64,000 nt of DNA from Arenicola marina (lineage: Eukaryota; Annelida; Polychaeta; Arenicolidae): NCBI GenBank assembly GCA_964019135.1, contig CAXHSH010000416.1:558001-622000 (forward strand), read 5' to 3'. How positions within the stretch are numbered: the stretch's first letter is position 1; the number at the start of each line of letters is the position of its first letter. Under the pieces are notes generated by a model that was not told the origin of the DNA, searched no databases, and saw nothing but the letters and a program-made list of their open reading frames with translations. The position numbers and the translations under genes are program-made. Below are positions 11,801 through 59,009 of this stretch, piece by piece.

Positions 11801-14800
11801 GTGAAGGCCTTGATGCTTGACTGCCATGTGATGACCGCCATTATCTACGGCCGATTTGACCGCAGTTGCTTATTGAACAAGGTAAGCCATCATCCACTTA
11901 GGTTTGACACATACCACAATATGTATGATATCTGAGAACGCTTTGAGAAAGTGTTAAAACTGTACGTACACAGGCATAAACCCTCCCATAATAATAACGC
12001 CAATCATGAATCAAAAACTATTTGCGATGTCGAAATTTTTTGGGGGTTGTTTCTGTATTGAATTACAGATGGATCACAATTGTTATGACTTGGTACTTGG
12101 CGCGGTGCTCGAAGTTGGGAATCACTGCATGGTGATTGCTGGTAACTTTTAACTGAACGTGTATTTATTGTAAAGAAACGCTTGTCCGTGATGAGCAGGA
12201 TTTCTATTTAGCGTATTGAGCCTACCGTTGTGTTCAAAGGTAACAGCTGCTTAGTTCATAACTGTTTTTTTCGAATTGACGATTTTTTTTATGACAGGCT
12301 TTTGAGTTATAATCCAACAAGATAGTGAATTGGAACGCCACCATAGATGGATTAGCGAAAAGGAATACGTGCGATAAGCTGCATTAACAGTATGATCAGA
12401 TACTTCATAAAAAAGTAGAAACAATGATTAGCCGTAGAACGTTGTCAATTGCATGAGCTACGGGCAAGCTTTTCTCGTTAGGTAATCAATCCAAAAGAAG
12501 AGAAACTGATGTATGTAAATCCCATTGGGGAGTTGGGAACCAGGGCACATGAACACATACGAAACTGGAGGTTGGTTTGCACCTTATTATTTACGGGCAT
12601 GCATTTTATGCAATTATCACAACCTTTACTATGGAAAATGAAGGGAAATCGTTATTTTTCTTGTGGTTCTCTGTGATTATTACTTTATTCGCTTTGGACA
12701 CCAGGTTTTCCTGTACGGGACAGCTCTATTTCACTTGGGGCCACTAAGTGCAGATGTATATCTTGTTTACCCGGGACAGCGCGTTCATCTGACAGCGTCT
12801 TGTCTAAAAAATGAAAAAAGAATCGTAGATGGAGGAATAAGAAGTAACACACGTGACATAGACTAGTCGCAAAATAGAGAGAGGGCCCAGAAAACGTGTT
12901 GAAGACTTTTTTTCATTTAAAGTTGGCAACCTAATGTTAGTGCGCTGAATTCGAATATGGAATATGTAACGTATGGCGGTGTCGCAAAGGCTGAGCCCTT
13001 TTTATCCGAACTGGGAGAGGTGGCGAAATTAATTCATGGCTCCACGTAGGTGGAATAGTTGTACAAGTTACGTTGGTCTGGCCATTCCCAGTAGAATGTA
13101 GAGCTGAAAGGTGTGGAATGAATTCCTAGCTCATGGAATGTGGAATAGTTGTACAAGGTGTGTTGGGCAGGCTGCTTGGTGCAAAGTTCATCCCACTTAA
13201 CCTCATTGTTCACTTAGATCCTGTCAATATTCGGCATCAATCAACGTTTAATCATCTATGAAACTGATGTGACAAATACTACGATTACCAACATTATCAT
13301 AAACAATTGCGACTAGCCTAATAAACTGCATTGAGATAAACACATACGCGATCCGAGTTTATCATCAACGAACTGCGCCTCCGCTTCCTTTGCAGAAACT
13401 TCAAGTTCATGCGGTACCGGTCGGGTCCAAGCCGACGTACAAAGTATTCTATGACCGTCACTTGGCATATCAAGCAACTTGACGGACATAACTGCGGTGT
13501 CTTTGTACTGAAGGTACATATTATTATCTTTCGCTTAATATGATACATCGCCGGCTTAAAGTTGTGGAGTTTAGAAAAAAAACTAATTGCCTGCTTTCAC
13601 GAGAAGTACACTACATATAAGGCAGTTCTATCCACTGATTTTGTCCTCCAGGAAAGATGATGTGCTTCTTCGTTGACTGTACCTCATTTACAGTTCGCTG
13701 ACTGTATCCTGCAAAGCAGGAGTCTCGATGAAGTCACCAATCATGTACATTTCATGCAACTTTATCCGAGGGAGATCGCTGTAACCCTTCTCACCCAATC
13801 TGGTAGGTGTTGTTATTTTGATGCTCGTCCGTCATTGAGTTTAATGATTATCATTTATTTTATTTCGAAGCCTCATATATATGTATTTTCTTTACTAGTA
13901 TGAACTGATATGCATATTAAACAAAACGGCTTACGTTTGAGACTAAATCCGATTTTAACCGTGTTGCATGCGTATGAATGCGGTGACCGCGATAGTTATG
14001 ATGGCCTGAACTAACCCTTGATAAGTTTTGTTTATTCCAATCCAAGATGCAGTGAATGCGGTGACCGCGATAGTTATGATGGGCTGAACTAACCCTTGAT
14101 AAGTTGTGTTTATTCCAATTCAAGATGCAGTGAATGCGGTGACCGCGATAGTTATGATGGGCTGAACTAACCCTTGATAAGTTGTGTTTATTCCAATCCA
14201 AGATGCCGTGACTGCGGTGACCGCGATAGTTATGATGGGCTGAACTAACCCTTGATAAGTTGTGTTTATTCCAATCCAAGATGCAGTGAATGCGGTGACC
14301 GCGATAGTTATGATGGGCTGAACTAACCCTTGATAAGTTGTGTTTATTCCAATCCAAGATGCAGTGAATGCGGTGACCGCGATAGTTATGAGGGGCTGAA
14401 CTAACCCTTGATAAGGTGTGTTTATTCCAATTCAAGATGCAGTGAATGCGGTGACCGCGATAGTTATGATGGGCTGAACTAACCCTTGATAAGTTGTGTT
14501 TATTCCAATCCAAGATGCAGTGAATGCGGTGACCGCGATAGTTATGATGGGCTGAACTAACCCTTCATAAGTTGTGTTTATTCCAATCCAAGAAGCAGTG
14601 AATGCGGTGACCGCGATAGTTATGATGGGCTGATCTAACCCTTGATAAGTTGTGTTTATTCCAATCCAAGATGCAGTGAATGCGGTGACCGCGATAGTTA
14701 TGAGGGGCTGAACTAACCCTTGATAAGTTGTGTTTATTCCAATTCAAGATGCAGCGAATGCGGTGACCGCGATAGTTATGATTGGCTGAACTAACCCTTG

Positions 14801-15828
14801 ATAAGTTGTGTTTATTCCAATCCAAGATGCAGTGAATGCGGTGACCGCGATAGTTATGATGGGCTGAACTAACCCTTGATAAGTTGTGTTTATTCCAATC
14901 CAAGATGCAGTGAATGCGGTGACCGCGATAGTTATGAGGGGCTGAACTAACCCTTGATGAGTTGTGTTTATTCCAATCCAAGATGCAGTGAATGCGGTGA
15001 CCGCGATAGTTGTCAGGGGCTGAACTAGCCCTTGATAAGTTTTGTTTATTCCAATCCAAAATGCAGTGAATGCGGTGACCGCGATAGTTATGAGGGGCTG
15101 AACTAACCCTTGATAAGTTTTGTTTATTCCAATCCAAAATGCAGTGAATGCGGTGACCGCGATAGTTATGAGGGGCTGAACTAACCCTTGATAAGTTTTG
15201 TTTATTCCAATCCAAAATGCAGTGAATGCGGTGACCGCGATAGTTATGAGGGGCTGAACTAACCCTTGATAAGTTGTGTTTATTCCAATCCAAGATGCCG
15301 TGAATGCGGTGACCGCGATAGTTATGATGGGCTGAACTAACCCTTGATAAGTTCTGTTAACTCCAATCCAAGATGCAGTGATTGTAAATAAGTAATTTCT
15401 TGCTACAGGAACAGCTCTTTATTAGGATTATTGTCATAATAAAAAGAATGAATGTTCTGCAATACCACATCCAGACGAACAGATGTTATGTAATCGTAAT
15501 GACAAAAATACTTCCATAGGCTCATTGACATTATAATATATTGTCTGCAATACCACACTTTTATGTTATATAGATATTATATAATCATGATGCTAAAACA
15601 TATACATGCATTTTATCATTTCATGCTGATTGGACAATTTTGTGACAATAATTCTTTTAGTTACCATCACATGATTTATGGTCTGAAAGGCACATCATAA
15701 TACCTGTCTCTATGCGATTATTTGTAGGTCAAGTGCGATGGGTGCGTGGCATGGTATCACACCACTTGTGTGTGCGGCATCAATGACCCGTATACTTCTC
15801 TTGTTTTCTTGTGCGGCCGATGTTCCGG
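11801..15828 (+). CDS. Ulp1/SENP-type cysteine protease with PHD finger, partial gene model
   Basis: Five plus-strand exons were found by splice signals and motif. Exon 11801-11881 (phase 0 out, donor GTAAGC) and exon 12069-12141 encode 'LLNKMDHNCYDLVLGAVLEV' and then 'GNHCMVIA', matching the HW-type catalytic His block of peptidase C48. Exon 13396-13513, after the strong acceptor CGCTTCCTTTGCAG, encodes 'WHIKQLDGHNCGVFVLK', the Gln and catalytic Cys block. Exon 13694-13802 continues 'FADCILQSRSLDEV...REIAVTLL', the usual C-terminal helices. Exon 15728-15828 encodes 'KCDGCVAWYHTTC...CGRC', the second half of a PHD finger. Phases show that at least one exon between 12141 and 13396 (probably with the catalytic Asp) and one before 15728 (first PHD half) were missed. 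The Trp of the usual His-Trp pair is Cys. The family deconjugates SUMO-like modifiers; it also occurs in transposons, so element origin is possible. Confidence 0.6.
13972..15378 (+). repeat. 78-bp minisatellite, about 18 copies, intronic
   Basis: The unit (containing GCGGTGACCGCGATAGTTAT and CTAACCCTTGATAAGTT) repeats at a constant 78 bp with few differences, within the intron between the 13694 and 15728 exons. Each unit carries the short palindrome CGGTGACCG. Because 78 is divisible by three, the minus strand shows two long frames of a 26-residue repeat (198 and 242 codons). I treat these as by-products of the period and not as a protein. Confidence 0.95.
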
Positions 15829-18382: not shown

Positions 18383-19543
18383 TTATGGCTGACTTTGTCC
18401 TGGGACATGTAAGGCTGAGTCCAGGGCTTGTTCAATCAGCTGATAGCGCTTTACACCCAGTCGTGCATCACTGATTTGAACAAAAGACAAGAATGCTAAA
18501 ATGTTTGTGGCATTTCTTTTGTGGAGAAGGTATCTGATAAATTTGGATATCCCGCTAAGTCCATTGTCACTTCCACCTTCCTCGACAATGCCGGGTGAGT
18601 GTGGATCAGCCAACCGAAATGCTGCAACATTGTTTGTGGCCCCTGCCCTAACAGGGTCCATCAGGAGCCGGAGAAAGGATTCCCGGGCCTGGCCAACAGT
18701 CTTTACCTCGGCTACTGAGATGAGAAAGGAACAGCCTTTGGATGAGACTGTATCACCATGGTGCAGGCTAGGGGCAGAGCTGGTGATTCTTTCTCTTTCT
18801 TCCTTGGGAATAGTTAGCAGATCCCGCGTGGAGGGTGTTGGTAGGGGTTCCCTCTGCTTCTCACCGTTGACATAGAGTTCCTGATTGGTCAGCTTGATCT
18901 TCACCTGCTCCGTTGGTAGGGCCTTCTTCTTCAAGTAATCAACTCGAGCCCCCATACGCCGTCTGTTCTCTAAAATTTCAGTAGGGGATTGTGGTGTAAT
19001 CTTCAATTTGTCGAGGCCTTTGGGAAGTTTCTTACCGAGGAAGATGATATGTTCAGCAGCTTTCTGAGACAGAAGACTGACAACAATTGGTCTAGGCCTT
19101 TTCTGCTTATCAATTTTATAACCCAGTCTGTGAGACCGCTCAATCGCAGGGATGGCGTTGAGTCCAAGTAATCTCTGGAAGACATCAACGACTGTGGCGA
19201 CACAATCTTCAGATGGGTTGGTGGATTCAGGCATGTTGCGCAGAAGAATGTTGTTACGCATTCCTCTACATTTGAGGTCCAGAATCTCCCTTTTCAGTTC
19301 TGAGATTTCATCACTCTGTTTTATCATGAGATTGCGCAGCATATCCAGCTCAGCTCTGATATCCGAAGTCTGATTGTGGTGAACAGCGATCAGATTGGTA
19401 TTTTCACCAGTTTCATCTTCAACAATGGCTAAACGGTTTTGGATTCCAAAAGTACCCTGTATATCTTCATCTATGGTATCCTGTCTTGTAGTAAGTGAAT
19501 CCAGTTTCATATGCAATCCCTCGACCAAGTCTGTGAGTTTATC
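18383..19543 (-). CDS. LINE ORF1 protein with IMPACT/UPF0029-like C-terminal domain
   Basis: The minus-strand frame is open from just below 19546 and runs about 386 codons to a stop at 18383. It begins near DKLTDLVEGLHMKLDSL. Residues about 15-105 have coiled-coil heptads ending in 'LKREILDLKCRGMRNNILLR', the entry to an L1-type ORF1 RRM. 'AIERSHRLGYKIDKQKRPRP' and 'ILENRRRM' match the RRM and C-terminal blocks of L1/Tx1 ORF1p, an RNA-binding trimer. The last 115 or so residues (from 'SKGCSFLISVAEVKTVGQAR') align by eye with the IMPACT/YigZ (UPF0029) fold: GxxF start, 'NNVAAFRLAD', a degenerate acidic-Gly turn, 'ATNILAFLSF', 'ARLGVKRYQLIEQALDSAL'. The family's GG turn is lost. No ORF2 follows; a short (TGTAA)n-like tail follows the stop. 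The 5' end abuts a gag-protease fossil. Confidence 0.75.
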   Translation of the reverse strand, partial: DKLTDLVEGLHMKLDSLTTRQDTIDEDIQGTFGIQNRLAIVEDETGENTNLIAVHHNQTSDIRAELDMLRNLMIKQSDEISELKREILDLKCRGMRNNILLRNMPESTNPSEDCVATVVDVFQRLLGLNAIPAIERSHRLGYKIDKQKRPRPIVVSLLSQKAAEHIIFLGKKLPKGLDKLKITPQSPTEILENRRRMGARVDYLKKKALPTEQVKIKLTNQELYVNGEKQREPLPTPSTRDLLTIPKEERERITSSAPSLHHGDTVSSKGCSFLISVAEVKTVGQARESFLRLLMDPVRAGATNNVAAFRLADPHSPGIVEEGGSDNGLSGISKFIRYLLHKRNATNILAFLSFVQISDARLGVKRYQLIEQALDSALHVPGQSQP

Positions 19544-29099: not shown

Positions 29100-32000
29100 G
29101 TAAATGTATAAACTGTGGACCGCTTTAATGCCGCCGTCGATGATTATTGATTCTATTTCCTGACAGTTAACAGAAAACTTATTTATTTCATTTGAGTATT
29201 GCACATAATAATATGAGTGGGATTGTTGTGTCAATTGGCGGTTATCATATATTAATTACGCTAATCTTTCATTGTCAAATCGGGGCGGCCCGACAGCTCA
29301 GTGGGCAAGAGCGCTCGCATTGAGCGATCTGGCCACCTGAGAGCCTAACGGCACGTGGGTCGATGGTTCGAGCCCTGCTGTGGTCATGTCTATGTGATCG
29401 CAGGATAAAGATCCCATGTCCTTCTTCGCAAAGAGTAGGGGGTTACCCCGGGGATATGGCTCCACTCTCCCTTCCTTCTCCCATTGACGCGATATGAATG
29501 ATCAAAAGTGGTTAAAGCGTTCTGAATAGTCAATCAATCAATCAATCATTGTCAAATCTTGCGCTCATGGGTAGTCTGCTCTATTACAATTATTAAACAG
29601 AAAGCGAAAAAGCTACACCAGAGTAGGTCAGGTAAGCTTAGTCTTTTATTGCCATTAAGTAAAAATGTGTTGTTTTGCATACGTTTATTGAAATATAAAA
29701 TATATGCTTAATTTTATTTCTTTAAGACCTTTTGGGATTCTTCAATTGTTTTTCTTTGCTGTTCACATATTGTAATATTTACGATATCAATACATGTAAA
29801 GCACCTGTTTGTTATCATTAAGACTATGTCTCCAGACGATGCCTTCTTTCGTATATAGTTAAAAATAATTTCCATATATATGTAATAAGTTTATATTTGC
29901 CTTTATCCAGTTTAACTCAAATGTGCTATCTACTGGGAGCAGTATATTTATGGTTCCAGTGGTCAGTAAGAAATATGGAACGGGACCAGTCACAAACCAG
30001 TTGGTATAACCTTGCCAACACTGACTGGTTTAATTGATTGTAAATAAAAAAATTCCATTGCTTAATGTAGGCCGATATTGTCTGGGTTTACCATGTACTT
30101 TATAGTTCTTAGACAGGTATCAGAATATGCTCGCGCCGGGTTTGACGAATCCTTATTATTATTGCAGCCTGTTCAGGGATTGTGGAAGGGAAGGAGGCCT
30201 CCTGTGAGATGGACATGGTGTCGGACCCCGTATGCCAGAATACAACTGACCAGCGCAAGTCACCCGAGATCACACCAGGCAACAGGTAAGCAGTGAAACA
30301 TATGCTAATTAGGATCACGCCACATTGTTTTCTGATATCAAAGCATTAATTCGACGGCCGCTTGTACACACTATATCGAATAAAACTGTTATATTGCGCT
30401 GCGTTTTAAAAGAAATGATTTTGTCCTTGCAGTGAAACGAGTGCTATGGAAGGATCTGTACGAGATGGGGATGAGGCAGAAATCCCAAAACCAGGTTAGT
30501 ATACCGATCTCTGTGTTACTGTACTAATGTTACTGTGCCGATGCATGCATGCCTACTTAGTTCAGAGACTGTATGTCATTTCAATTAGTTACAATGCTTA
30601 CGCAGTGGATAGGGTCTGCTTAGCCTTGTGAGATCGTTTATATCATTTTGAAACAGTAGGACATTGGCTATATGCTCAGCATGAAAATATCTACCACATC
30701 TCTGTAAGCTGGTAGTGTATGTGGATACTGGATTGATTATCAGAGACATGTCTGAAGGAAACTTGTAAACAAATTGAACTGTCTTGTTTATCCGGTCTTC
30801 CATGTCTGGGTTTGAAAACGATCTCAGAAGGTTACTGCTTGTGCTACACATTTGTTAAATGAAGTTTCGTAGTTTTGCAACTTTGGTCAATACACTGTGA
30901 ATGTCGTGGTTAAATTGTGGGATTATACAAGATGACCTCATATATATACTAGATGACTAAAGTAGCTAAAACGGTGAGCAAAATTGATCAGACAATCTGA
31001 AGGTCGACCCAGGTTGGAAGGTGGAGCTTGCTTTAAATGTTGTATATGTGTTTCCTTGTGAGATCATATATCCTACATGGCTCTATGGCGGCATGGACAC
31101 CGATTAGGCTCACTGAAATGAGATGCTTGCTCCTAATTAATACAGGGAGCGTTTCATAGTTTATTGGTGAAACGTCTTATCCCATTATAGCTGGATGTAC
31201 AACAAAGTGGCCTAAATGACCCTTGTGAGATCAGGTGGCTCCATGGCGAATCATTTAGTCACCTGACATGTATTGTTGCTGTACGGGATATATTGACATT
31301 GCCTACCCAGATATTAAGGATTGTACATATGTCGATGATTTTGTCAATATGTAGGTCTTGGGATACTTCTTTGTGGTCAGCAATCAATTTACAATTGTGA
31401 TGTTACTGCTTGTGAGATCACGCGATAAAGTGTTACTTAGGCTAAAACCACATAGATTTGTGACAAAGTTGAGTTTTGATGCCTTTTGTGACGGGATAAG
31501 CTCATCGTGAATATAATTTTACCATTGCTTGGAAGGCCAATATTGTTTGGGTTTACCATGTACTTTATAGTTCTTAGACAGGTATCAGAATATGCTCGCG
31601 CCGGGTTTGACGAATCCTTATTATTATTGCAGCCTGTTCAGGGATTGTGGAAGGGAAGGAGGCCTCCTGTGAGCTTGACATGGTGTCGGACCCCGTATGC
31701 CAGAATACAACTGACCAGGCCAAGTCACCCGAGATCCCACCAGGCAACAGGTAAGCAGTGAAACATATGCCAATTGGGATCACGCCACATTGTTCTTTAT
31801 ATCAAAGCATTAAATCGACGGCCGCTTGTAAACACTATATCGAATAAAATTGATATATTGCGCTGCTTTTTAAAGGCAAAGATTTTGTCCTTGCAGTGAA
31901 ACGAGTGCTATGGAAGGATCTGTACGAGATGGGGACGAGGCAGAAATCCCAAAACCAGGTTAGTATACCGATCTCTGTGTTACTGTACTAATGTTACTGT

Positions 32001-35000
32001 GCCGATGCATGCATGCCTACTTAGTTCAGAGACTGTATGTCATTTCAATTAGTTACAATGCTTACGCAGTGGATAGGGTCTGCTTAGCCTTGTGAGATCG
32101 TTTATATCATTTTGAAACAGTAGGACATTGGCTATATGCTCAGCATGAAAATATCTACCACATCTCTGTAAGCTGGTAGTGTATGTGGATACTGGATTGA
32201 TTATCAGAGACATGTCTGAAGGAAACTTGTAAACAAATTGAACTGTCTTGTTTATCCGGTCTTCCATGTCTGGGTTTGAAAACGATCTCAGAAGGTTACT
32301 GCTTGTGCTACACATTTGTTAAATGAAGTTTCGTAGTTTTGCAACTTTGGTCAATACACTGTGAATGTCGTGGTTAAATTGTGGGATTATACAAGATGAC
32401 CTCATATATATACTAGATGACTAAAGTAGCTAAAACGGTGAGCAAAATTGATCAGACAATCTGAAGGTCGACCCAGGTTGGAAGGTGGAGCTTGCTTTAA
32501 ATGTTGTATATGTGTTTCCTTGTGAGATCATATATCCTACATGGCTCTATGGCGGCATGGACACCGATTAGGCTCACTGAAATGAGATGCTTGCTCCTAA
32601 TTAATATAGGGAGCGTTTCATAGTTTATTGGTGAAACGTCTTATCCCATTATAGCTGGATGTACAACAAAGTGGCCTAAATGACCCTTGTGAGATCAGGT
32701 GGCTCCATGGCGAATCATTTAGTCACCTGACATGTATTGTTGTTGTACGGGATATATTGACATTGCCTACCCAGATATTAAGGATTGTACATATGTCGAT
32801 GATTTTGTCAATATGTAGGTCTTGGGATACTTCTTAGTGGTCAGCAATCAATTTACAATTGTGATGTTACTGCTTGTGAGATCACGCGATAAAGTGTTAC
32901 TTAGGCTAAAACCACATAGATTTGTGACAAAGTTGAGTTTTGATGCCTTTTGTGACGGGATAAGCTCATCGTGAATATAATTTTACCATTGCTTGGAAGG
33001 CCAATATTGTTTGGGTTTACCATGTACTTTATAGTTCTTAGACAGGTATCAGAATATGCTCGCGCCGGGTTTGACGAATCCTTATTATTATTGCAGCCTG
33101 TTCAGGGATTGTGGAAGGGAAGGAGGCCTCCTGTGAGCTTGACATGGTGTTGGACCCCGTATGCCAGAATACAACTGACCAGGCCAAGTCACCCGAGATC
33201 ACACCAGGCAACAGGTAAGCAGTGAAACATATGCTAATTGGGATCACGCCACATTGTTTTCTGATATCAAAGCACTAAATCGACGGCCGCTTGTACACAC
33301 TATATCGAATAAAACTGTTATATTGCGCTGCGTTTTAAAGGCAAGGATTTTGTCCTTGCAGTGAAACGAGTGCTATGGAAGGATCTGTACGAGATGGGGA
33401 CGAGGCAGAAATTCCAGATCTAGGTTAGTATACCGATCTCTCTGTTATTGTACTAATGTTACTGTGCCGATGCATGCATGCCTATTTAATTCAGAGACTG
33501 TATGTCATTTCAATTAGTTACAATGCTTACGTAGTGGATAGGGTCTGCTTAGCCTTGTGAGATCGTTTATATCATTTTGACATAGTAGGACATTGGCTAT
33601 ATGCTCAGCATGAAAATATCTACCACATCTCTGTAAGCTGGTAGTATATGTGGATACTGGATTGATTATCAGAAACATGTCTGAAGGAACTTTTAACTAG
33701 TTCAACTGTCTTGCCTATCCGGTCTTCGATGTCTGGGTTTGAAAACGATCTCAGAAAGTTACTGCTTGTGCTACACATTTGTGTTTCATAATTTGACATT
33801 GTGGGTTTTTTAGGGTTTTACTTTCAGACAAATGAGGCATTTCGCTTGCAACGTTATGTTGTTACACTTCTTATTCTTTAAATGCATCACCATATACCTG
33901 TTTATATATAATACTTGCCGTACAAACATGCCGTAAATATTATGTTGCAGATATTCTAGTTGATGGAGAAAACATCATCCCGGAAAGCGAGGATAGCAGC
34001 AGTTCCATTGAGTTTCCGTTAATAGTTGACAGAAGGATTAAAAGAAATATCACAGAAGCGGGAAATGATGCTATTACGATACCAACGATATTAAAGAGAG
34101 AGTATTCGGTTACTGGGCTGAAGAAGAAGTCCTTTCGAGTTTGGAACGTAGTTCATTATTGCCTATACTGTGAATACAATGGAACCAATATAAGTAGACA
34201 TCTACGGAACAAGCACAACACAGAGGCGGACGTCCTGCAAATTCTGGAATCGGTTGATGTGGACCATGACGAAAAGAAACATAAAGAAACAGCAGCGAAA
34301 AAAATGGAATTGCTCAGAATGCGTGGCGATCATAAGCATAACATTTCTGTTCTGGAGAATGGGCAGGGCAACATTGTACTCGCACGTCGCAAACATGAGG
34401 AAGAATTTAATATCGATGACTTTGGACCCTGTCCAGAATGTTACTCATGGATGTCTTTGACTGAAATACCCCGCCATCAGAAAAACAGATGTATGGCCAT
34501 TTCACTCCTGAAGACTCGGCATGTCGTGTTGTCAGCCAGTAACTTAACAATGCGCTCCAAGGTGCTGAAGGGTGATCTGGGTGATGAGTACCACGGGGCC
34601 TCGAAGATTTTGAAAGAAACTGTTCTCGACCAGATGCATCGAGGTGACGTTAAAGACACTGTGGTGTCCGACAGGCTCATCATTCGACTAGGCGAGGAGT
34701 GGCTAGCAAAGTGCAGCCGTAATGCTCTAAGAAGAGCGAACTATACATCGAATCGGATGCGTCGGGTGGCGAGACTGCTGTTGGAATGCAGAAAGATCAT
34801 GCCCCAGATACACAGTATGGAAAATTTTCTTATACCACATTGTGTTGACACAATTGTACAAGCAAGTATGACTCTGTCCGGATGCGAAAGCCAGTTTGAT
34901 ATGAAAACCCCTTCCGTTGCTAAGGGACTCAGAGAAGACCTTGTACGACTGGCGCAAGCAAAGGAATTGTTTGCCATCAAAGAAGGGGATAAAATAAAAC

Positions 35001-38674: not shown

Positions 38675-41296
38675 TTCTGCGGAGACTGACCGGCCCCAGA
38701 TAAAACGGCGGGGTGTAGGCGTTACTTCCACTGGAGAGACTGACTGGTCCAGGATACAGGGACGGGGGCGTTACTGCTGCTGGAGAGACTGACTGGTCCA
38801 GGATACAGGGGCGGGGGCGTTACTGCTGCTGGAGAGACTGACTGGTCCAGGATACAGGGGCGGGGGCGTTACTGCTGCTGGAGAGACTGACTGGTCCAGG
38901 ATACAGGGGCGGGGGCGTTACTGCTGCTGGAGAGTCTGACTGGTCCAGGATACAGGGGCGGGGGCGTTACTGCTGCTGGAGAGACTGACTGGTCCAGGAT
39001 ACAGGGACGGGGGCGTTACTGTTGCTGGAGAGTCTGACTGGTCCAGGATACAGGGGCGGGGGGGTTACTGCCACTGGAGAGACTGACTGGTCCAGGATAC
39101 AGGGGCGGGGGCGTTACTGCTGCTGGAGAGACTGACTGGTCCAGGATACAGGGGTGGGGGCGTTACTGCTGCTGGAGAGACTGACTGGTCCAGGATACAG
39201 GGACGGTGGCGTTACTGCCACTGGAGAGACTGACTGGTCCAGGATACAGGGGCGGGGGCGTTACTGCTGCTGGAGAGACTGACTGGTCCAGGATACAGGG
39301 GTGGGGCGTTACTGCTGCTGGAGAGACTGACTGGTCCAGGATACAGGGGCGGGGGCGTTACTGCTGCTGGAGAGACTGACTGGTCCAGGATACAGGGGTG
39401 GGGGCGTTACTGCTGCTGGAGAGACTGACTGGTCCTACAGGGGTGGGGGCGTTACTGCCACTGGAGAGACTGACTGGTCCAGGATACAGGGGTGGGGGCG
39501 TTACTGCTGCTGGAGAGACTGACTGGTCCAGGATACAGGGGTGGGGGCGTTACTGCTGCTGGAGAGACTGACTGGTCCTACAGGGGTGGGGGCGTTACTG
39601 ACACTGGAGAGACTGACTGGTCCAGGATACAGGGGTGGGGGCGTTACTGCTGCTGGAGAGACTGACTGGTCCAGGATACAGGGGTGGGGGCGTTACTGCT
39701 GCTGGAGAGACTGACTGGTCCAGGATACAGGGGGGCGGGCGTTACTGCTGCTGGAGAGACTGACTGGTCCTACAGGGTTGGGGGCGTTACTGCCACTGGA
39801 GAGACTGACTGGTCCAGGATACAGGGGTGGGGGCGTTACTGCTGCTGGAGAGACTGACTGGTCCAGGATACAGGGGTGGGGGCGTTACTGCTGCTGGAGA
39901 GACTGACTGGTCCTACAGGGGTGGGGGCGTTACTGCCACTGGAGAGACTGACTGGTCCAGGATACAGGGGTGGGGGCGTTACTGCTGCTGGAGAGACTGA
40001 CTGGTCCAGGATACAGGGACGGGGGCGTTACTGCCACTGGAGAGACTGACTGGTCCAGGATACAGGGGCGGGGGCGTTACTGCTGCTGGAGAGACTGACT
40101 GGTCCAGGATACAGGGACGGGGGCGTTACTGCCACTGGAGATACTGACTGGTCCAGGATACAGGGGCTGGGGCGTTACTGCTGCTGGAGAGACTGACTGG
40201 TCCAGGATACAGGGGCGGGGGCGTTACTGCTGCTGGAGAGACTGACTGGTCCAGGATACAGGGGCGGGGGCGTTACTGCTGCTGGAGAGACTGACTGGTC
40301 CAGGATACAGGGGTGGGGCGTTACTGCTGCTGGAGAGACTGACTGGTCCAGGATACAGGGGCGGGGGCGTTACTGCTGCTGGAGAGACTGACTGGTCCAG
40401 GATACAGGGGTGGGGGCGTTACTGCTGCTGGAGAGACTGACTGGTCCTACAGGGGTGGGGGCGTTACTGCCACTGGAGAGACTGACTGGTCCAGGATACA
40501 GGGGTGGGGGCGTTACTGCTGCTGGAGAGACTGACTGGTCCAGGATACAGGGGTGGGGGCGTTACTGCTGCTGGAGAGACTGACTGGTCCTACAGGGGTG
40601 GGGGCGTTACTGCCACTGGAGAGACTGACTGGTCCAGGATACAGGGGTGGGGGCGTTACTGCTGCTGGAGAGACTGACTGGTCCAGGATACAGGGGTGGG
40701 GGCGTTACTGCTGCTGGAGAGACTGACTGGTCCAGGATACAGGGGGGCGGGCGTTACTGCTGCTGGAGAGACTGACTGGTCCTACAGGGGTGGGGGCGTT
40801 ACTGCCACTGGAGAGACTGACTGGTCCAGGATACAGGGGTGGGGGCGTTACTGCTGCTGGAGAGACTGACTGGTCCAGGATACAGGGGTGGGGGCGTTAC
40901 TGCTGCTGGAGAGACTGACTGGTCCTACAGGGGTGGGGGCGTTACTGCCACTGGAGAGACTGACTGGTCCAGGATACAGGGGCGGGGGCGTTACTGCTGC
41001 TGGAGAGACTGACTGGTCCAGGATACAGGGGTGGGGGCGTTACTGCTGCTGGAGAGACTGACTGGTCCTACAGGGGTGGGGGCGTTACTGCCACTGGAGA
41101 GACTGACTGGTCCAGGATACAGGGGTGGGGGCGTTACTGCTGCTGGAGAGACTGACTGGTCCAGGATACAGGGGCTGGGGCGTTACTGCTGCTGGAGAGA
41201 CTGACTGGTCCAGGATACAGGGGCGGGGGCGTTACTGCTGCTGGAGAGACTGACTGGTCCAGGATACAGGGGCGGGGGCGTTACTGCTGCTGGAGA
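38675..41296 (+). repeat. 49-bp minisatellite, about 53 copies, in the 3' UTR
   Basis: The unit GGAGAGACTGACTGGTCCAG + GATACAGGGGCGGGGGCGTTACTGCTGCT is repeated with variants (a shorter form lacks the AGGATA; TGCCACT replaces TGCTGCT). Higher-order alternation of long and short forms is visible at 39400-41100. The array starts 22 bases after the stop codon at 38653 and precedes the poly(A) signal near 41544, so it appears to be transcribed as 3' UTR. Confidence 0.93.
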
Positions 41297-45644: not shown

Positions 45645-46810
45645 AAAAAACATGTGGTCCGCAAATGGACGGACGAAGACCTCGACCGGGCACTGGCGGA
45701 TAATAGGAGCGGAAAGAGGTCTGTGCGAAAAGCCGCAGAGATATATGGGGTGCCACGGAGCACGATATCGGACTATCTTTGCGGCTCCTCGCTCCCTGGC
45801 TGCTCCCTCGGCAGGCCACCTGTCCTTCCCCCCAAGGCTGAAGAGGCCCTTTTGACCAAGACCCAGGAGGCTGCTTCCCAGGGCCTAGGAGTCAGCAGAC
45901 TCCAGTTAATGTTGAAGGCTGGTTAGGATCTATTTCCCAATGTATTGATGCAACTTGAAGATTATTTTGATTATAGATGAAGTCGCTGTGTTCATGTAAT
46001 ATTAAGTGTTGCGTATTTATGAGTAAAAGCATAAGGAAAGTAACAGTTGATGCTTCAAGTGTCAGTAGGTGCAAATGCATTATAGATGAGAAATTGAAAG
46101 CTGAGAACTAAGTTCAGTGGCGACTTCGATGGCAGTCACTATAATGTGGCAACAACGACTAATACTATTTCTAAGCTGCGGATATACCTGTTCAACCCGC
46201 CTGTCCTTCTGCCGCCGGGTGTCTTCAGCCCCTCAAACATTTACGATCAGCCTGCTCCAAACGATATGCACTAATATTTCGTATTTCACGTGATTAATGC
46301 TGTGACATTGCTTTACTTCGTGCAGGTCAATTAGCACGATAAATACAGTTGACCACTCCCTTTCGAGATGGCGTCCCGGGAAAGGAATGGTGGTAAGGAG
46401 TCAAGAGGCGCCACCCCGACATGACCATCAGGCGCTCAGAAGCCACGTCGACGGTGCGTCTACATGCAATGAATCTCCCGGTTGTTGAAAAGTACTTCAC
46501 GGACTTAAACGACATTTTGGTGGGTCTGGGTCTAGCTGACCATCCATCGGCTATTTGGAATGCGGACGAAACCGGGTTTCAACTGCAGCACAAACAACAA
46601 ACCAACTTTGGTTTGTGCCAGAAAAGGCACGAGGGCATTGCCTGGTCGAACGGCGAACTCGAAAGAGTCCGTCAGTGATCTCGTCTGCGGCAATGCCTAT
46701 GGTGCTAGAATGCAGGCAGCGCAGGGTGCAGGCATTCACATTTTGGCTCTTTATTTTTTTGTGGGTCAACTTACGGGTCGATTTGTCTGCAACCCGCAGG
46801 GTTAGAGGTG
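45645..46810 (+). pseudogene. Decayed pogo/Tigger-type transposase
   Basis: 45654-45926 encodes 'RKWTDEDLDRALADNRSGK' and 'SVRKAAEIYGVPRSTISDY', a Psq/CENP-B N-terminal helix-turn-helix. After about 400 bases of unrelated sequence (intron or insertion) the second part appears near 46360: 'PGKEWW' then 'GVKRRHPDMTIRRSEA' and 'HPSAIWNADETGFQL', the latter carrying the first Asp of the DDE nuclease. At least one in-frame stop (TAA near 46394) and a frame change after 46600 break it, and the C-terminal Asp/Glu-Asp blocks are missing. Terminal inverted repeats were not identified. It is a dead DNA transposon copy. Confidence 0.75.
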
Positions 46811-52239: not shown

Positions 52240-52565
52240 TTCTTGGGAAGTGTTCACTTCACATCAAGCTGTCACGCCTGGCAATGTGAACACAGTTTCA
52301 ACTTTGCTCTGGGTTTACACAGATATTACGGAGGTTTATGACACCGACAGATGCACATACCCTACATTATATGTTGCATGAGGATATAGAGATTACACTG
52401 GATTACCCGCCACGCACTGCAAGCCTCGCATATGCGAGTTTTTGCCATTTTCCCGTCATATCTGGACGACCATTGCACTTGTTTTTCATCTTGATGCTGT
52501 TATATGCACCTGCATTTTGTTGACAACCGTGTGGAAATATCGAGCGCTGTACATTTCAGCTCGGA

Positions 52566-54518
52566 TTGAAACACGAGTCACCGGATTATTGCACCCTGCA
52601 CGACGAACAAAATCTGCTCAATATGGTTGAGCCGATTTTCTTCAAAGGCTGCGACTTAGTCGAGCTTCTTGAAACCGGAAACAAAATTGAGACACCTACA
52701 ATATACGAGGTCTGTGAAGCCGTCAGGAAAGCTACCAGCCGCGCGCCTGACGGCGCCCAGGCCCCTGAGATAACCAGGCGAGATTGCTGGCGGATTTACA
52801 TGTCGACTAAAGCTGACCGAGCCGAACTACTTGTTCGCCGCCACCTACGGATAAAAGACATACAGGTTGATCTGTATGACAAAAATCCGTATGTAACCAG
52901 ACAAGCCACCCCCTATGAACAGCGGGAAAAAATTACCATTAGGTACCTGCCAATGTCAGTGAGTAACGACGAAGTTGCAAAGGTACTGAAAGAAAAAGGC
53001 GTAAAGCTGACTTCACCAATCATGTATGCCAAAGCCCGAAATCCCGATGGCAAACTCACCGACTATAAGAATGGAGATCGGTATTGCTACGCCGAGGCCC
53101 CCATCGACCCTCTGGTGCCACGCCAGATACGTGTGGTGGGAATGAGATGTAAAGCCTACCACCAAGGACAATTCTCTATCCCATGCAAGGCGTGTGATAA
53201 AAATGGACACAAAGCTGGTGACAAAGATTGCCCGGCCCTGAACAAGGATGATGATGTGACTGTTTTTAAAGATCACAATATGATATTGTCAAACTTCCAC
53301 AACACCGATATCCATGTGTTTGGAGAAAGTTTTAAGAGCGTAGAACACGCCTACCAATGGAAACGTGCAACAGATCTTGGAAAAGCAGAACTGGCAGAGA
53401 GCATAAAAGCAGCATGCCACGCTGGGGATGCCAAAAAATGCAGCAGAGACCTACCAAAAGAACTAGTAGAATCATGGGAAGACAAAAGAGAAGATGTCAT
53501 GAGACATCTAATACGCACCAAAGCAAAGCAGAATGAACACTTCCGTCGCGCGATCCTGGATTGCAAGACCCAGATCGCAGAAGCAACAACCGATCGAGTG
53601 TGGGGAAGTGGACTCAGGGCAGACCACACAGCCATCACAAAAAGCGAATTTTGGCCGGGAATGAACTTACTCGGAAAAATAATGATGGAAGTTAGAAAAG
53701 AACTAAATGAAGTCACGTCACACGACAAGGAGCCTATCCACACCGCGATGACCGACTCCGCACCATCGGGGGAGAAACCCCCCCACACCGCAGCGGCTGA
53801 CTCCGCACCATCGGGTGAGAAACCCTCCCACGCCGCGGTGGCCGACTCCGCGCCACCGGGTGAGAAACCCTCCCACGCCGCGGTGGCCGACTCCGCGCCA
53901 TCGGGTGAGAAACCCTCCCACGCCGCGGTGGCCGACTCCGCGCCATCGGGTGAGAAACCCTCCCACGCCGCGGTGGCCGACTCCGCGCCATCGGGTGAGA
54001 AACCCTCCCACGCCGCGGTGGCCGACTCCGCGCCATCGGGTGAGAAACCCTCCGACGCCGCGGTGGCCGACTCCGCACCATCGGGTGAGAAACCCTCCCA
54101 CGCCGCGGTGGCCGACTCCGCGCCACCGGGTGAGAAACCCCCCCACACCGCAGCAGCTGACTCCGCACCATCGGGTGAGAAACCCTCCCACGCCGAGGTG
54201 GCCGACTCCGCGCCATCGGGTGAGAAACCCTCCGACGCCGATGTGGTCGACCCAGAGACCCAAGAGCGTGGCAGAAAAAAACATCGAGAGTTCACCGCTG
54301 CTCGAAGAGCTAACAACATCAACGTAGAGCGCTCTGCGTCAAAACCAACAATCAGCAATGCTGATAAATCTCAAACTGCGATCACCTGCTATCTTCGGCG
54401 AGAGCTTAGCCGTCAGAGGTCCGTCTCCAGCAAAAGGAAACTATCTGATAATTCTCCATCCGGAGCAGCCAAGCAAGGCCGAACAGATGAAGAGCCGCAA
54501 GAGAAAGACTATGGCTAA
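52566..54518 (+). CDS. LINE ORF1: RRM-like, zinc knuckle, NADAR domain, 15-residue repeats
   Basis: 650 residues. About 60-205 resemble the RRM-like N-terminus of ZCCHC3-type ORF1 proteins ('KITIRYLPMSVSNDEVAKVL'). A zinc knuckle 'CKACDKNGHKAGDKDC' follows at about 206-222. Residues about 236-380 match NADAR (YbiA-like) hallmarks in order: 'ILSNFHNTDI', 'FKSVEHAYQWKRATDLGKAE', 'SWEDKREDVMRHLIRTKAKQ', 'TDRVWGSGLRADH' and 'GMNLLGKIMMEVRKEL'. NADAR enzymes are glycosidases acting on ADP-ribose adducts, including ADP-ribosylated guanine. The expected catalytic-region Glu, Trp and WG are present. Then come eleven exact-length 15-residue repeats ('DSAPSGEKPSHAAVA') and a basic tail. Start could also be Met 52623. 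Confidence 0.88.
   Translation: MKHESPDYCTLHDEQNLLNMVEPIFFKGCDLVELLETGNKIETPTIYEVCEAVRKATSRAPDGAQAPEITRRDCWRIYMSTKADRAELLVRRHLRIKDIQVDLYDKNPYVTRQATPYEQREKITIRYLPMSVSNDEVAKVLKEKGVKLTSPIMYAKARNPDGKLTDYKNGDRYCYAEAPIDPLVPRQIRVVGMRCKAYHQGQFSIPCKACDKNGHKAGDKDCPALNKDDDVTVFKDHNMILSNFHNTDIHVFGESFKSVEHAYQWKRATDLGKAELAESIKAACHAGDAKKCSRDLPKELVESWEDKREDVMRHLIRTKAKQNEHFRRAILDCKTQIAEATTDRVWGSGLRADHTAITKSEFWPGMNLLGKIMMEVRKELNEVTSHDKEPIHTAMTDSAPSGEKPPHTAAADSAPSGEKPSHAAVADSAPPGEKPSHAAVADSAPSGEKPSHAAVADSAPSGEKPSHAAVADSAPSGEKPSHAAVADSAPSGEKPSDAAVADSAPSGEKPSHAAVADSAPPGEKPPHTAAADSAPSGEKPSHAEVADSAPSGEKPSDADVVDPETQERGRKKHREFTAARRANNINVERSASKPTISNADKSQTAITCYLRRELSRQRSVSSKRKLSDNSPSGAAKQGRTDEEPQEKDYG
53753..54247 (+). 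repeat. 45-bp coding minisatellite, 11 copies, inside LINE ORF1
   Basis: Units of 45 bp with at most a few substitutions (GACTCCGCGCCATCGGGTGA at the start of each). The period keeps the frame and also opens three antisense and one alternate-sense frames of 160-335 codons, which are shadows. Confidence 0.97.
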
Positions 54519-54850
54519 TCCAAATAACAACCTCCGAAGACCTAACGACGACGACCTGGAAGTGTCAATGGACTACGATTACATATTCGTATTAACGAGT
54601 GACTGTCACCAATGCGTTTAAGGCATTAATATTATGAGTATATTTTCACCTCGTAAAATGAAACGAAAAATGTCGGAAGCCAATCGTGAGTATGCAAATG
54701 TAAAGCTTATACATGTGAAAACTACACGTCAGCATGTGAGAGCTGACAGTTGCAAGCACTGTATCTCAAGACCGCGTGGCTATAAATATCAACAGCTCCT
54801 TGCTACAAAGGGACAATGTATTTAAGACCAAACAGTTGTGCGATAATACA

Positions 54851-57800
54851 ATGAGCAAATCTGATAAATTAACGGTAGTTTCTTTAAACTGCAGGGGACT
54901 TCGAAACCCGATAAAAAGATCTGCAGTACTACAGTTTCTAAAGGACCAAAACGCCCATATCTCTTTCCTTCAGGAAACTTTTATTACTGATGACATAACT
55001 GAGAAATTTAACGCCGACTGGGACGGAGAAGCTTTTCACTGTGTGAGCGACTCAAGTCATAGTAGAGGTGTGTCCATTCTGTTCCATAACAAATATAAGC
55101 CAAAAATTAAGTCGTGTCACAGAAGCAATGAAGGGAGAAAGCTCCTGTTAAACATTGAACATGAAAACGATCTATATACCTTGGTTGTAGCTTATGCCCC
55201 TGATAAAGGTAGAGCGATATTCCTTAAGAAACTATCGATCTGGATTAAGCGCCATGCTTGTAATCTAGATAATCTAATCATAGGAGCAGACCTGAACACG
55301 GTTGACAACACTATTGATAGGACATCAGGTAATCTCGACCAAAGTTCTTCCCAATTTTCTAAATTTAAATCTGCATTAGACTTAAAAGATGCTTGGCGAT
55401 GTAAGCATCCCAATGACCAAAAATTCACATATGTACATCCGTCGATAAATGGAACGATGTCACGTATTGACTATGTATTAGCTTCCCGCTCAGTAAATGT
55501 CAATGTAAGCAAGGCTGAAATCAAGCCGGCACCCGTACCCGACCACAAAGCCGTTATCTGTACAGCAACCCTAGCTGAAAACAAGCGAAATCGGGGAAAG
55601 GGCTACTGGAAATTGAACAATTCATATCTTGAAAAAAAGGAGTACACCAAAAGCGTTTCCGAAATCATATCGGAAACGCTTAATGAATACGAGGATATCG
55701 TATCGCATAAGACCCTCTGGGACATCTGCAAAATAAAAATTAAAGAATACTCTATCACGTTTGGAATAAGAGCAAAAAGACAAGCAACCAACGAGATCCA
55801 AAATTTAGAGAACAAAATAACCGAAATTGATAACGCGATAGCGAAACATTTCAATACAGATTTACAAGTTGAACGTAAACAGCTGAAATCAAACTTAGAC
55901 AACATAACGATCACCAAAGCGCAAGGTGCCCAAATTCGCTCTCGAGCTGAATGGGTGGAAAAGGGTGAGCGTAACACAGCTTATTTCATGCGCCTAGAAA
56001 AACAACGCCAATCGAAAAACAGAATTGACTGTCTTATTTCAGAAAACGGCAAGTGCCTAACATCCGATAATGAAATATTGTCTGAAACGGTAACGTTCTA
56101 CAAAAAACTGTATCAAAGTCGAAATCCCGAAGAGCAAGAGATAGACAAATATCTAAAGAATATAGATAAGCATGCAGTCCTTGACGATATATCAAAATCC
56201 AAATGTGAAGGTCCCGTCACGGCAAATGAAATTGACGAGGCAGTCAGTGGGCTTAAGTGCAACAAAAGCCCAGGAAATGACGGCCTCGGTTCTGAGTTTT
56301 ATAAGACGTTTTCAAATCAAATCAAGCCAATCCTTGTTAATGTGTACAATGAATCATATCTGCAAGGTGAATTGAACTACTCCCAACGAGGCTCTCTACT
56401 ATCATTAATTCATAAAAAGGGACCAAGAGAAAATATTGCAAACTACCGACCTATCAGCCTAGCGAATACCGACTACAAGATATTAGCGTTTATACTTTCA
56501 AATCGTTTACAAAAAGTGTTGGATAAAATTATCAGCAAGGACCAAACAGCATATATTAAAAAGCGCTTCATTGGAACAAATATCAGACTCATTCAAGATC
56601 TGATACAACATGCAGATACAAAAGACAAAAAAGGTCTGCTATTATTTCTCGATTTTGAGAAAGCTTTCGATTCGGTAGAGTGGCTGTTTATAGAAAAAGT
56701 ACTCAAAAAGTTCAGGTTTGGAAATGAATTCATTAAATGGGTCCAGACTTTATACAACAATTCTTATCTGTACGTAAAAAATAATGGGCATATGTCAGAA
56801 AGCTTTCAAGTAAACCGAGGTGTCAAACAAGGATGCCCCCTCTCAGCTCTACTTTTTATCATCGTAGTCGAAATCTTATCTATTAAAATAAAAAGCAATA
56901 AAAAAATAAAAGGCTACCGCATTAAACAACATGGTGAAGAAAAAACAGTGAAACTGTCTCAATATGCCGACGATGGCACACTGCTACTGCAAGATGCAAA
57001 TCAAATAAAATTTGTATTAGAAGAAATTGATGCTTTCTCAAAAAGGGCTGGACCTCTGTTAAACAAAAGCAAAACAATTGGAATGTACTTAGGCAAAGGC
57101 AAGCACAAAGATATTACTATTAATGATATAAAAGTTGTAAGCACTCCCATAAGATACCTTGGAATATACATTGGACAAAATCTAGCCAAATGCAATGAAC
57201 TAAACTGGGAAAAAAAGATAAAACAAATAGAAGATGAGATTGAAAACTGGCAAACTCGAGAACTTACCATATTTGGAAAGGTAACCATTATCAAAACACT
57301 TCTTGTTCCTAAAGTAACATTCGTAGCGACACATACAGCTATACCAAACGACCAAACGATCTCGCAGATCGACAAAATCCTATATAATTTCATTTGGGGA
57401 AAAAGCGATAGACTGAAACGAAAGCAATTAATACGTAAAATAGAACAAGGCGGCATAGCAATGATTGACATAAGATCCCACTTTCAAGCCATAAAAGCAT
57501 CATGGGTTAAAAGGATCGTCAACGTTGACGAAAATTGGAACTTTCTAGCCCGATCGCACTTAAATAGTCTTGGAGACGACTTCCTTTTTCTGAAATTTAA
57601 AAATATCAATAAGCAAAACCTACCACAAATTAAACTTCTGCCTAAATTCTACCAAGAAGTATGCGAATCCTATAGCCAAAGCAAAGAAGAAACGCGACCT
57701 ATTGTATTTGAAAACCTGCGTGACGAAATACTCTGGGGAAATTGTTTTATTTCGTACAAGAAAATATGCGGGAAAAACTGTTGCCTGCTTTTCAAGTCCT

Positions 57801-58174
57801 TCATAGAAGTAGGGATCATACGTATAAGAGATTTGGATTTCTCAATGGGGAAACTATGTGAGCTCTCACTACACGAAAGAGTGAAAGACAAGAGGAATAT
57901 TTTTGCTGAGATATCTCTTCTACGGCAGGCTCTTAAACCATATAAAGACGTTATAAACTCGGAGACGTCATACGCCTCATGTCCATATGCAACTGCCCCT
58001 CTAGCCGCCCCGATCGCCGACGTCTCGACTCGCGCATATTATGAAATATTTATTGCGAAGAAAAGTGAAGTACCGAACACAGAAGTAAAATTATCAAATC
58101 TTTTCAACCGCCTCGATATTAATTTTGCTGATGTATATAAGAGGAAAATTAAGGATATTCCAGACAGAAAATAG
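54851..58174 (+). CDS. LINE ORF2: endonuclease and reverse transcriptase
   Basis: The frame is open from 54776; ATG 54851 (MSKSDK) lies just before the endonuclease and is the likelier start. Endonuclease motifs: 'VVSLNCRGLRNP', 'SFLQETFI', 'VVAYAPDKG', 'IIGADLNTVDN', 'SRIDYVLAS', 'VPDHKAV'. Reverse transcriptase motifs: 'KSPGNDGLGSEFYKTF', 'NYRPISLANTDYKIL', 'LLFLDFEKAFDSVEW', 'GVKQGCPLSALLF' and the active site 'YADDGTLLL', followed by 'PIRYLGIYIG' and thumb. All catalytic residues I looked for are present. The frame ends at 58174, but its expected C-terminus continues in another frame. Confidence 0.93.
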   Translation: MSKSDKLTVVSLNCRGLRNPIKRSAVLQFLKDQNAHISFLQETFITDDITEKFNADWDGEAFHCVSDSSHSRGVSILFHNKYKPKIKSCHRSNEGRKLLLNIEHENDLYTLVVAYAPDKGRAIFLKKLSIWIKRHACNLDNLIIGADLNTVDNTIDRTSGNLDQSSSQFSKFKSALDLKDAWRCKHPNDQKFTYVHPSINGTMSRIDYVLASRSVNVNVSKAEIKPAPVPDHKAVICTATLAENKRNRGKGYWKLNNSYLEKKEYTKSVSEIISETLNEYEDIVSHKTLWDICKIKIKEYSITFGIRAKRQATNEIQNLENKITEIDNAIAKHFNTDLQVERKQLKSNLDNITITKAQGAQIRSRAEWVEKGERNTAYFMRLEKQRQSKNRIDCLISENGKCLTSDNEILSETVTFYKKLYQSRNPEEQEIDKYLKNIDKHAVLDDISKSKCEGPVTANEIDEAVSGLKCNKSPGNDGLGSEFYKTFSNQIKPILVNVYNESYLQGELNYSQRGSLLSLIHKKGPRENIANYRPISLANTDYKILAFILSNRLQKVLDKIISKDQTAYIKKRFIGTNIRLIQDLIQHADTKDKKGLLLFLDFEKAFDSVEWLFIEKVLKKFRFGNEFIKWVQTLYNNSYLYVKNNGHMSESFQVNRGVKQGCPLSALLFIIVVEILSIKIKSNKKIKGYRIKQHGEEKTVKLSQYADDGTLLLQDANQIKFVLEEIDAFSKRAGPLLNKSKTIGMYLGKGKHKDITINDIKVVSTPIRYLGIYIGQNLAKCNELNWEKKIKQIEDEIENWQTRELTIFGKVTIIKTLLVPKVTFVATHTAIPNDQTISQIDKILYNFIWGKSDRLKRKQLIRKIEQGGIAMIDIRSHFQAIKASWVKRIVNVDENWNFLARSHLNSLGDDFLFLKFKNINKQNLPQIKLLPKFYQEVCESYSQSKEETRPIVFENLRDEILWGNCFISYKKICGKNCCLLFKSFIEVGIIRIRDLDFSMGKLCELSLHERVKDKRNIFAEISLLRQALKPYKDVINSETSYASCPYATAPLAAPIADVSTRAYYEIFIAKKSEVPNTEVKLSNLFNRLDINFADVYKRKIKDIPDRK

Positions 58175-58602
58175 CTGCCTTTAACTTTAAAGTAATTAAT
58201 CAAATCTTACCCTGCAAAAGAAACCTTGTGAAATGGGGAAAAATTGAATCTGACTTGTGTGACCGATGTGGACTCCCAGAAAATACTATGCATTTGTTAC
58301 ACGATTGTTATTTCTCGAAAGAAATTTGGAAACTGACATCAGAGCTGCTGAGCGTTAAAATTAGTTTAAAGGAAATTATTCTCGGCGTTCAGAATAAATC
58401 GATCAACTTTGTAATATCGGTGCTATCATTTCTTTTATACAAAGACTGGCTTCTCCACACTAAAGACGGTGCTAGCCGAGAGAGTACTAAGTCAAAGGCA
58501 TTTCTCAAGCGTGAATTAATGACAAAAGCAAATGTGTATATTTTGTTAAATTGGACCGATGTTGGAAGTATTCTTCGTTTTATAAGCACGATCATGTTTT
58601 AA
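58168..58602 (+). pseudogene. Frameshifted C-terminus of LINE ORF2
   Basis: In the frame of 58168 the protein continues 'KIAAFNFKVINQILPCKRNL' and 'LCDRCGLPENTMHLLHDC', the usual CCHC-like C-terminal zinc module of L1/Tx1 ORF2, to a stop at 58602. A single-base length change near the A run at 58168-58171 separates it from the main frame. This is either one inactivating mutation or a sequencing error in a homopolymer. Confidence 0.85.
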
Positions 58603-59009
58603 TTCGAACCTCTGTCAACTGATTTTATATGTTTTGGTGAATAAAATCCTTATAAAAAAAAAAAAAAAAAAAAAAATTCTTGGGAAGTGTTGCAGTTGTG
58701 CGGGTTACGTAAAGACTTATATGTGTATGCATATTGGTCACGATATCGCATTTCGTGACAAGTCGTGACATAGCGCATTTGTTGACATAGCGCATTGTAC
58801 CAGTTCGAGAAATGATGTTTCCACGACAGTCCGGATGAATAGGTCTTTCGTTGCACTTGCCGCATTTGTTGTCGTGTTTGACAACGAGATATATAATATT
58901 AATGGTAATCTTATTAGCCTCACTTATTCTAGCGACGACAGCGAGACCGTTATAACGCACTTTTCTATTCTGTCATCATTGAAAAGTAGGTCGCAAGAAT
59001 CCACCATTT

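What the first reader, a model, noticed from the sequence alone, without database searches (positions are those of the whole stretch)
52566..54518. LINE ORF1 carrying a NADAR (ADP-ribose glycosidase-type) domain
Seen: a young LINE ORF1 with RRM-like region, zinc knuckle and then a segment with all NADAR landmarks (SVEHAYQ, W..KR.DVM, VWGSG, G.N.LG..MMEVR). Known: NADAR/YbiA proteins cleave ADP-ribose linkages, including on guanine, and ADP-ribosylation is an antiviral and DNA-damage mark in animals. Inferred: the element may strip host ADP-ribose marks from its RNA, cDNA or RNP. I cannot tell whether this fusion has been described.
Basis: partly seen in the sequence, partly recalled or inferred. 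Interest (0 to 1): 0.88.

Follow-up and report, generated by a model that had tools for sequence, protein, structure and literature searches.

The report
Retrotransposon ORF1 with a NADAR domain
A young jumping gene carries, in the protein thought to package its RNA, a domain related to enzymes that cut ADP-ribose off DNA bases, and its relatives in the same genome that were examined carry it too; such a fusion was noted once before in oyster, and why jumping genes would need it is an open, testable question.

The parts
52240..52254 (.). 5' copy of the 15-bp target-site duplication
   Evidence: exact match to 58677-58691
52255..58676 (+). LINE element, 6,422 bp including A tail; 5' leader 52255-52622; its first ~20 nt are not shared with the eight fetched sister copies
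52623..54518 (+). ORF1, 631 residues from ATG
52623..53171 (+). two RRM-like folds (P0001 residues 20-202)
   Evidence: AlphaFold model; PDB fold matches to tandem RRM proteins over model residues 1-183
53184..53231 (+). zinc knuckle C207-C210-H215-C222
   Evidence: sequence; nearly invariant columns in A1
53271..53705 (+). NADAR domain, P0001 residues 236-380; E260, R267, K290, R294, W304, R308, E339, D343, W346 align with E43, K50, K75, R79, W89, R93, E125, D130, W133 of the oomycete NADAR
53738..54251 (+). 45-bp minisatellite, 11.4 copies, coding a 15-residue repeat tail
54776..58174 (+). ORF2 main frame (first in-frame ATG 54851): endonuclease PF03372 and reverse transcriptase PF00078, L1-like
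58228..58602 (+). ORF2 C-terminal part (weak zf-RVT match, E=0.011, below cutoff) in another frame, after a frameshift
58677..58691 (.). 3' copy of the target-site duplication

Best explanation
This is ORF1 of a recently active L1-like LINE whose RNA-binding protein (tandem RRM plus zinc knuckle) carries a YbiA-type NADAR domain, most likely a working ADP-ribosyl N-glycosidase. Shown by computation: the domain, its fold match, its kept catalytic residues in this copy, its retention in the loci examined and purifying selection between families. Inferred: the RRM/knuckle part holds the element RNA, so the NADAR is delivered to the RNP and nascent cDNA; there it removes ADP-ribose attached by host transferases (guanine N2 adducts are the best-documented NADAR substrate), protecting the element in the way macro and NADAR domains are argued to protect animal RNA viruses.
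Against: No activity was measured. Two adenine-side contacts (Y84, D86) are not kept (YbiA lacks them too). Family L083/L084/L086/L087 has D, M, V, L at E43, K50, E125, W133 yet intact frames and near-identical copies, so catalysis is dispensable in at least one lineage; L082 has G at E43 and one search shows some copy of family F5 with K there. Among the 14 RRM-knuckle proteins, K50 is V, M or A in five, W89 missing or changed in three, D130 changed in five. Own-genome families F5 and F6 lack W89 and R93; the L1-type proteins mostly lack R79, R93 and D130. Host unnamed, so no host transferase is identified; E. coli YbiA acts on riboflavin intermediates, and NADARs outside DarT operons acted less efficiently in the DarT1 setting. 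Within-family NADAR dN/dS runs from 0.12 to 1.52 on very few differences: no support from that level.
Confidence: 0.5

Rival explanations
1. The NADAR acts as a non-catalytic reader or scaffold that binds ADP-ribose, NAD-capped RNA, nucleic acid or ADP-ribosylated host proteins, to tether the RNP; catalysis is optional.
For: One intact, recently amplified family has lost all four key residues; 5 of 14 RRM-knuckle relatives lack a basic residue at K50; E88A in E. coli C7 NADAR had only a minor effect in vitro.
Against: 13 of 17 own-genome rows keep E125 and W133, and 120 of 120 listed L1-type proteins keep both glutamates; binding alone would not obviously need both (inference).
Confidence: 0.2
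2. The domain acts on small molecules (riboflavin intermediates, free or cyclic ADP-ribose, NAD-derived immune signals) rather than on marks on the element.
For: E. coli YbiA is a riboflavin-intermediate N-glycosidase (passages); TIGR02464 is the best NCBIfam model; phage NADARs are argued to target small ADP-ribose derivatives (PMC9503650 passages).
Against: Fusion to RNA-binding ORF1 proteins of two different folds suggests action at the RNP (inference); no benefit of riboflavin clean-up to a retrotransposon is evident (inference).
Confidence: 0.17
3. The domain processes the element's own RNA intermediate (ends or caps), as proposed in passing for Ectocarpus and oyster elements.
For: Proposed in PMC12477816 (passage); the NADAR protein SNA-3 is required for nematode SL1 trans-splicing and mutation of key NADAR residues inactivates it (PMC9303266 abstract and passages).
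Against: No biochemical RNA-end activity of NADAR appears in what I read; the window has no Rfam match at gathering threshold, which says little.
Confidence: 0.1
4. A neutral passenger or an assembly artefact.
For: Within-family substitution ratios reach or exceed 1 in places.
Against: NADAR in 62 of 62 examined loci on many contigs, dN/dS far below 1 between families, relatives in other data sources.
Confidence: 0.02

Closest known systems
Tx1 LINE ORF1 NADARs of Crassostrea gigas (Repbase; noted in PMC12477816, main-text passages seen, supplement not seen)
   Same: LINE ORF1 carrying a YbiA-family NADAR domain
   Different: I had no oyster sequences to compare; the passages I saw give no active-site, selection or structural analysis of the oyster elements
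[quoted passage not shown]
   Same: retrotransposon with NADAR
   Different: LTR element, domain in Pol; that paper suggests possible acquisition by horizontal transfer, with almost only bacterial hits
E. coli YbiA (2b3w) and oomycete NADAR (8bau)
   Same: fold and most catalytic and contact residues
   Different: not fused to RRM and knuckle domains; substrate of the LINE domain unknown
L1-type ORF1-NADAR proteins found here (P0013, P0016-P0134)
   Same: ORF1-type RNA-binding protein followed by NADAR
   Different: human-L1-like coiled coil-RRM-CTD instead of RRM-zinc knuckle; NADAR in another part of the tree
Macro and NADAR domains of animal positive-strand RNA viruses (PMC9503650 passages)
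   Same: argued to erase host ADP-ribosylation for a parasitic RNA element
   Different: viral polyproteins; sequences not compared here
Esterase and PHD domains of CR1/L2 ORF1 (PMC4120745 passages, PMC3905857 search listing)
   Same: extra domain fused to LINE ORF1
   Different: different domain and chemistry

Membership tests
NADAR superfamily | profile match above curated cutoff | tested here: met
   94.3 bits vs 35.1, E=1.3e-26
NADAR superfamily | YbiA fold | tested here: met
NADAR superfamily | distal-ribose glutamate (E43) and basic residue at K50 | tested here: met
   E260; R267 in place of K
YbiA subfamily | glutamate, not Asp or His, at the E125 position | tested here: met
   E339; definition from PMC11543638
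ADP-ribosyl glycosidase (function) | hydrolysis of guanine-linked ADP-ribose | not testable with these tools
   needs an enzyme assay
LINE, L1-like | APE-type endonuclease plus RT nearer to L1 than to R2 | tested here: met
   human L1 ORF2p 332.7 bits, best R2 78.6 bits; PF03372 and PF00078; only a few LINE clades are represented among solved structures
LINE, L1-like | A tail and target-site duplication | tested here: met
   15-bp duplication
Tx1 clade | RT phylogeny within Tx1 | not tested
   no Tx1 reference sequences at hand
Type I ORF1 (RRM immediately upstream of CCHC) | RRM followed by CCHC knuckle | tested here: met
   model and C207-C210-H215-C222; last spacing is 6 instead of 4; definition from PMC4120745 passages
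Type II (L1-like) ORF1, for the proteins P0013, P0016-P0134 | coiled coil, RRM, CTD | tested here: met
LINE, for the proteins P0013, P0016-P0134 | adjacent ORF2 with RT | not tested
   only proteins, no contigs, were available

The most novel reading that the evidence does not exclude
ADP-ribosylation of retrotransposon nucleic acid or RNP is an animal defence against LINEs, and unrelated LINE lineages (RRM-knuckle ORF1 and L1-type ORF1) have each armed their RNA-packaging protein with a NADAR eraser; guanine-N2 transferases of the CARP-1 kind would be the obvious host weapon where the host has them, and families that lost the active site have either escaped that defence or turned the domain into a reader.
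Probability: 0.3. Interest if true: 0.88.

Novelty: new member of a known kind. Interest (0 to 1): 0.62.

Why it matters
NADAR domains are reported in many invertebrates, but their role in animals is stated to be unclear (PMC11125620 passages). A retrotransposon that keeps one under constraint across family splits is a natural experiment: if catalytic mutants lose retrotransposition only where ADP-ribosyltransferases are active, ADP-ribosylation is an anti-transposon defence. The family that lost its active site gives a built-in contrast.

Tried and rejected
dN/dS from public relatives was not possible (the searches return proteins only), so own-genome loci were used. Single-origin test: the ML trees put the NADARs of the two ORF1 types in different, well-supported parts among bacterial and phage NADARs (14 RRM-knuckle, 24 of 120 L1-type, 17 references; 20, 15 of 120, 23), but the AU test does not reject one LINE clade (p 0.066; p 0.239); separate gain is favoured, not shown. 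References were picked mainly by similarity to the window NADAR, so the tree is not a survey. Site-specific insertion was considered (known for some Tx1 elements, recalled) and not supported: the window and eight sister copies have unlike flanks. My duplication finder reported one for 2 of those 8; in the printed flanks I see 9-15 shared bases in five more and none in L036. tRNA-Leu calls inside ORF1 lie in the minisatellite and were set aside. L002 was dropped from all counts because its frame is broken. A pattern scan of viral contigs with the window NADAR gave no relative; an alignment scan gave two. Whole-protein alignment reads the E339 column as 11 of 14, which I put down to register shifts; the domain alignment reads 13 of 14. 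Earlier description: searches were 'NADAR'+'retrotransposon', 'NADAR domain', two of 'Tx1/ORF1/NADAR', 'DUF1768'+'retrotransposon', 'YbiA'+'transposable element', three of 'NADAR/LINE/ORF1p/ADP-ribose' (listings of 20 of 104, 15 of 15, 20 of 101, 0, 2 of 2 and 10 of 92 papers); among what they listed, only PMC12477816 was seen to report the fusion. Subscription papers and Repbase are not held. A count of NADAR (PF08719) in the host genome was asked for repeatedly and never answered, so host NADAR genes and any L1-type NADAR elements there are unknown.

Full report
What is there. The frame at 52566-54518 (+) is open for 650 codons, with the first ATG at 52623. It is ORF1 of a LINE at 52255-58676: an exact 15-bp duplication flanks it (52240-52254 and 58677-58691) and it ends in an A tail. 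ORF2 (54776-58174) has an APE-type endonuclease and a reverse transcriptase far closer to human L1 ORF2p (332.7 bits) than to R2 (78.6 bits). The end of ORF2 lies in another frame (58228-58602), so this copy is broken there.

Active site. Schuller and colleagues (PMC11543638, section 12 read) name the ADP-ribose contacts. By alignment with 8bau, E43, K75, R79, W89, R93, E125, D130 and W133 are identical in the window (E260, K290, R294, W304, R308, E339, D343, W346), K50 is R267, and the adenine-side contacts Y84 and D86 are not kept. In E. coli C7 NADAR the K to R change kept hydrolysis in vitro but not rescue from toxin. The E125 glutamate marks the YbiA subfamily.

Relatives in public data. 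With residues 20-385 as query, NADAR included, 12 proteins pass E 0.001 and all 12 carry PF08719; 11 of them share the RRM-knuckle architecture, the twelfth is P0013. With only the RRM-knuckle half of P0002 as query, 5 of 5 hits carry it, one of them the query itself and two new. Across the 14 RRM-knuckle proteins (window included), E43 is kept in 13, K75 in 13, E125 in 13 and W133 in 14, but K50 is basic in only 9, W89 is kept in 11 and D130 in 9.

Own genome. The ORF1 search gave 89 matches that fall into several families. I fetched 41 further loci, chosen for long matches (rows with many stops were passed over): eight sister copies of the window element and 33 loci of other families and single loci. 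All 41 and the window hold one unbroken frame that aligns through the NADAR region; one (L053) ends inside it. As a fairer test I searched with the RRM-knuckle part alone (153 matches) and fetched 20 more loci, most of them covering most of that query. All 20 have NADAR sequence downstream; in 8 it lies in one frame with the N-terminal part, in the other 12 stops or frameshifts have broken one or the other, and in L088 only a 48-residue piece was found. So 62 of 62 examined loci have it; about 90 rows, many short but some long, were not examined.

Selection. Among eight own-genome representatives (five families and three single loci; the family that lost its active site is not among them), codon-model dN/dS for NADAR is 0.029 (last log value) or 0.068 (checkpoint), and 0.062 or 0.075 for the RRM-knuckle part; lnL for NADAR is -3666.2 free and -3890.5 with the ratio fixed at 1. 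Silent sites are saturated, so the value is rough. Between the window family and the nearest family 86 of 145 NADAR differences fall at third positions and 44 codons change residue, where the same number of random changes alters 90 on average and never under 80 in 200 trials. Within families the ratios scatter (NADAR 0.12 to 1.52, RRM-knuckle 0.00 to 1.26) on very few differences, as expected for copies that decay after insertion. At the protein level NADAR (mean pairwise identity 0.39) is about as conserved as the two RRMs (0.34 and 0.41), less than the knuckle (0.53) and far more than the tail (0.14); in the L1-type proteins NADAR (0.53) exceeds RRM (0.43) and CTD (0.48).

A counterexample. 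Four loci of one family (L083, L084, L086, L087), with frames of 454-515 codons and two to five nucleotide differences over 166-170 codons, have Asp, Met, Val and Leu at the E43, K50, E125 and W133 positions. Most of those few differences change the residue, so no constraint is visible at that level. This family amplified recently without a NADAR active site. Of 17 own-genome rows tabulated, 12 keep E43, 13 a basic K50, 13 E125 and 13 W133.

How it probably works. Shown by computation: fold match, catalytic residues, constraint, fusion to RNA-binding-type domains. Inferred: ORF1p coats the element RNA, so NADAR rides on the RNP; its substrate is ADP-ribose put there by the host, on nucleic acid or protein. 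NADARs remove ADP-ribose from guanine (PMC11543638, PMC11125620); six edible clams have guanine-N2 DNA ADP-ribosylating activity, one enzyme (CARP-1) having been cloned (PMC11209040, passage); [quoted passage not shown] ZAP/PARP13 restricts human L1 (PMC4441479, abstract and headings), with its zinc-finger domain sufficient by a section heading, so it supports ADP-ribosylation as a defence only loosely. Whether this host has such transferases was not tested.

Novelty. The fusion itself is in print: PMC12477816 (passages) reports NADAR in ORF1 of several oyster Tx1 LINE families and in Ectocarpus Gypsy elements and suggests RNA processing. In the listings of six searches of the held library I saw nothing on the L1-type fusion, on active-site retention in LINEs or on selection. 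The window element is a new member of that known kind; the L1-type ORF1 and the family without an active site are new variants of it, found outside the window.

Noticed in passing
window 18383-19528 (-): Another L1-like coiled-coil ORF1 (by eye) with an extra C-terminal segment; it reminded me of the UPF0029/IMPACT domain (recalled), but Pfam and NCBIfam gave no match.
   Followed up: partly
L090:1903-6582 (+) and L091:1818-4337 (-): RRM-NADAR proteins with frames of 1560 and 840 codons; L090 continues into a long Gly/Asn/Ser-rich repeat tail; NADAR is the only Pfam match at E 0.1. Whether they are LINE ORF1s was not checked.
   Followed up: partly
L083, L084, L086, L087: NADAR ORF1 family with the key active-site residues replaced but intact, nearly identical copies.
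   Followed up: yes
window 30588-30854 and 32052-32318; 31492-31758 and 32956-33222: Identical or nearly identical frames 1,464 bp apart suggest a local tandem duplication.
   Followed up: no
window 53787-53883 and 54057-54152 (-): ARAGORN tRNA-Leu calls inside the ORF1 minisatellite, very likely false.
   Followed up: no
window 45645-46675 (+): Frames that look like a pogo/Tigger-type DNA transposon (recalled resemblance, not searched).
   Followed up: no
L006: Bacillus phage NADAR gene with a macro-domain gene two genes downstream.
   Followed up: no
window 38710-41296 and 13975-15381: Large minisatellite arrays of 49-bp and 78-bp units.
   Followed up: no
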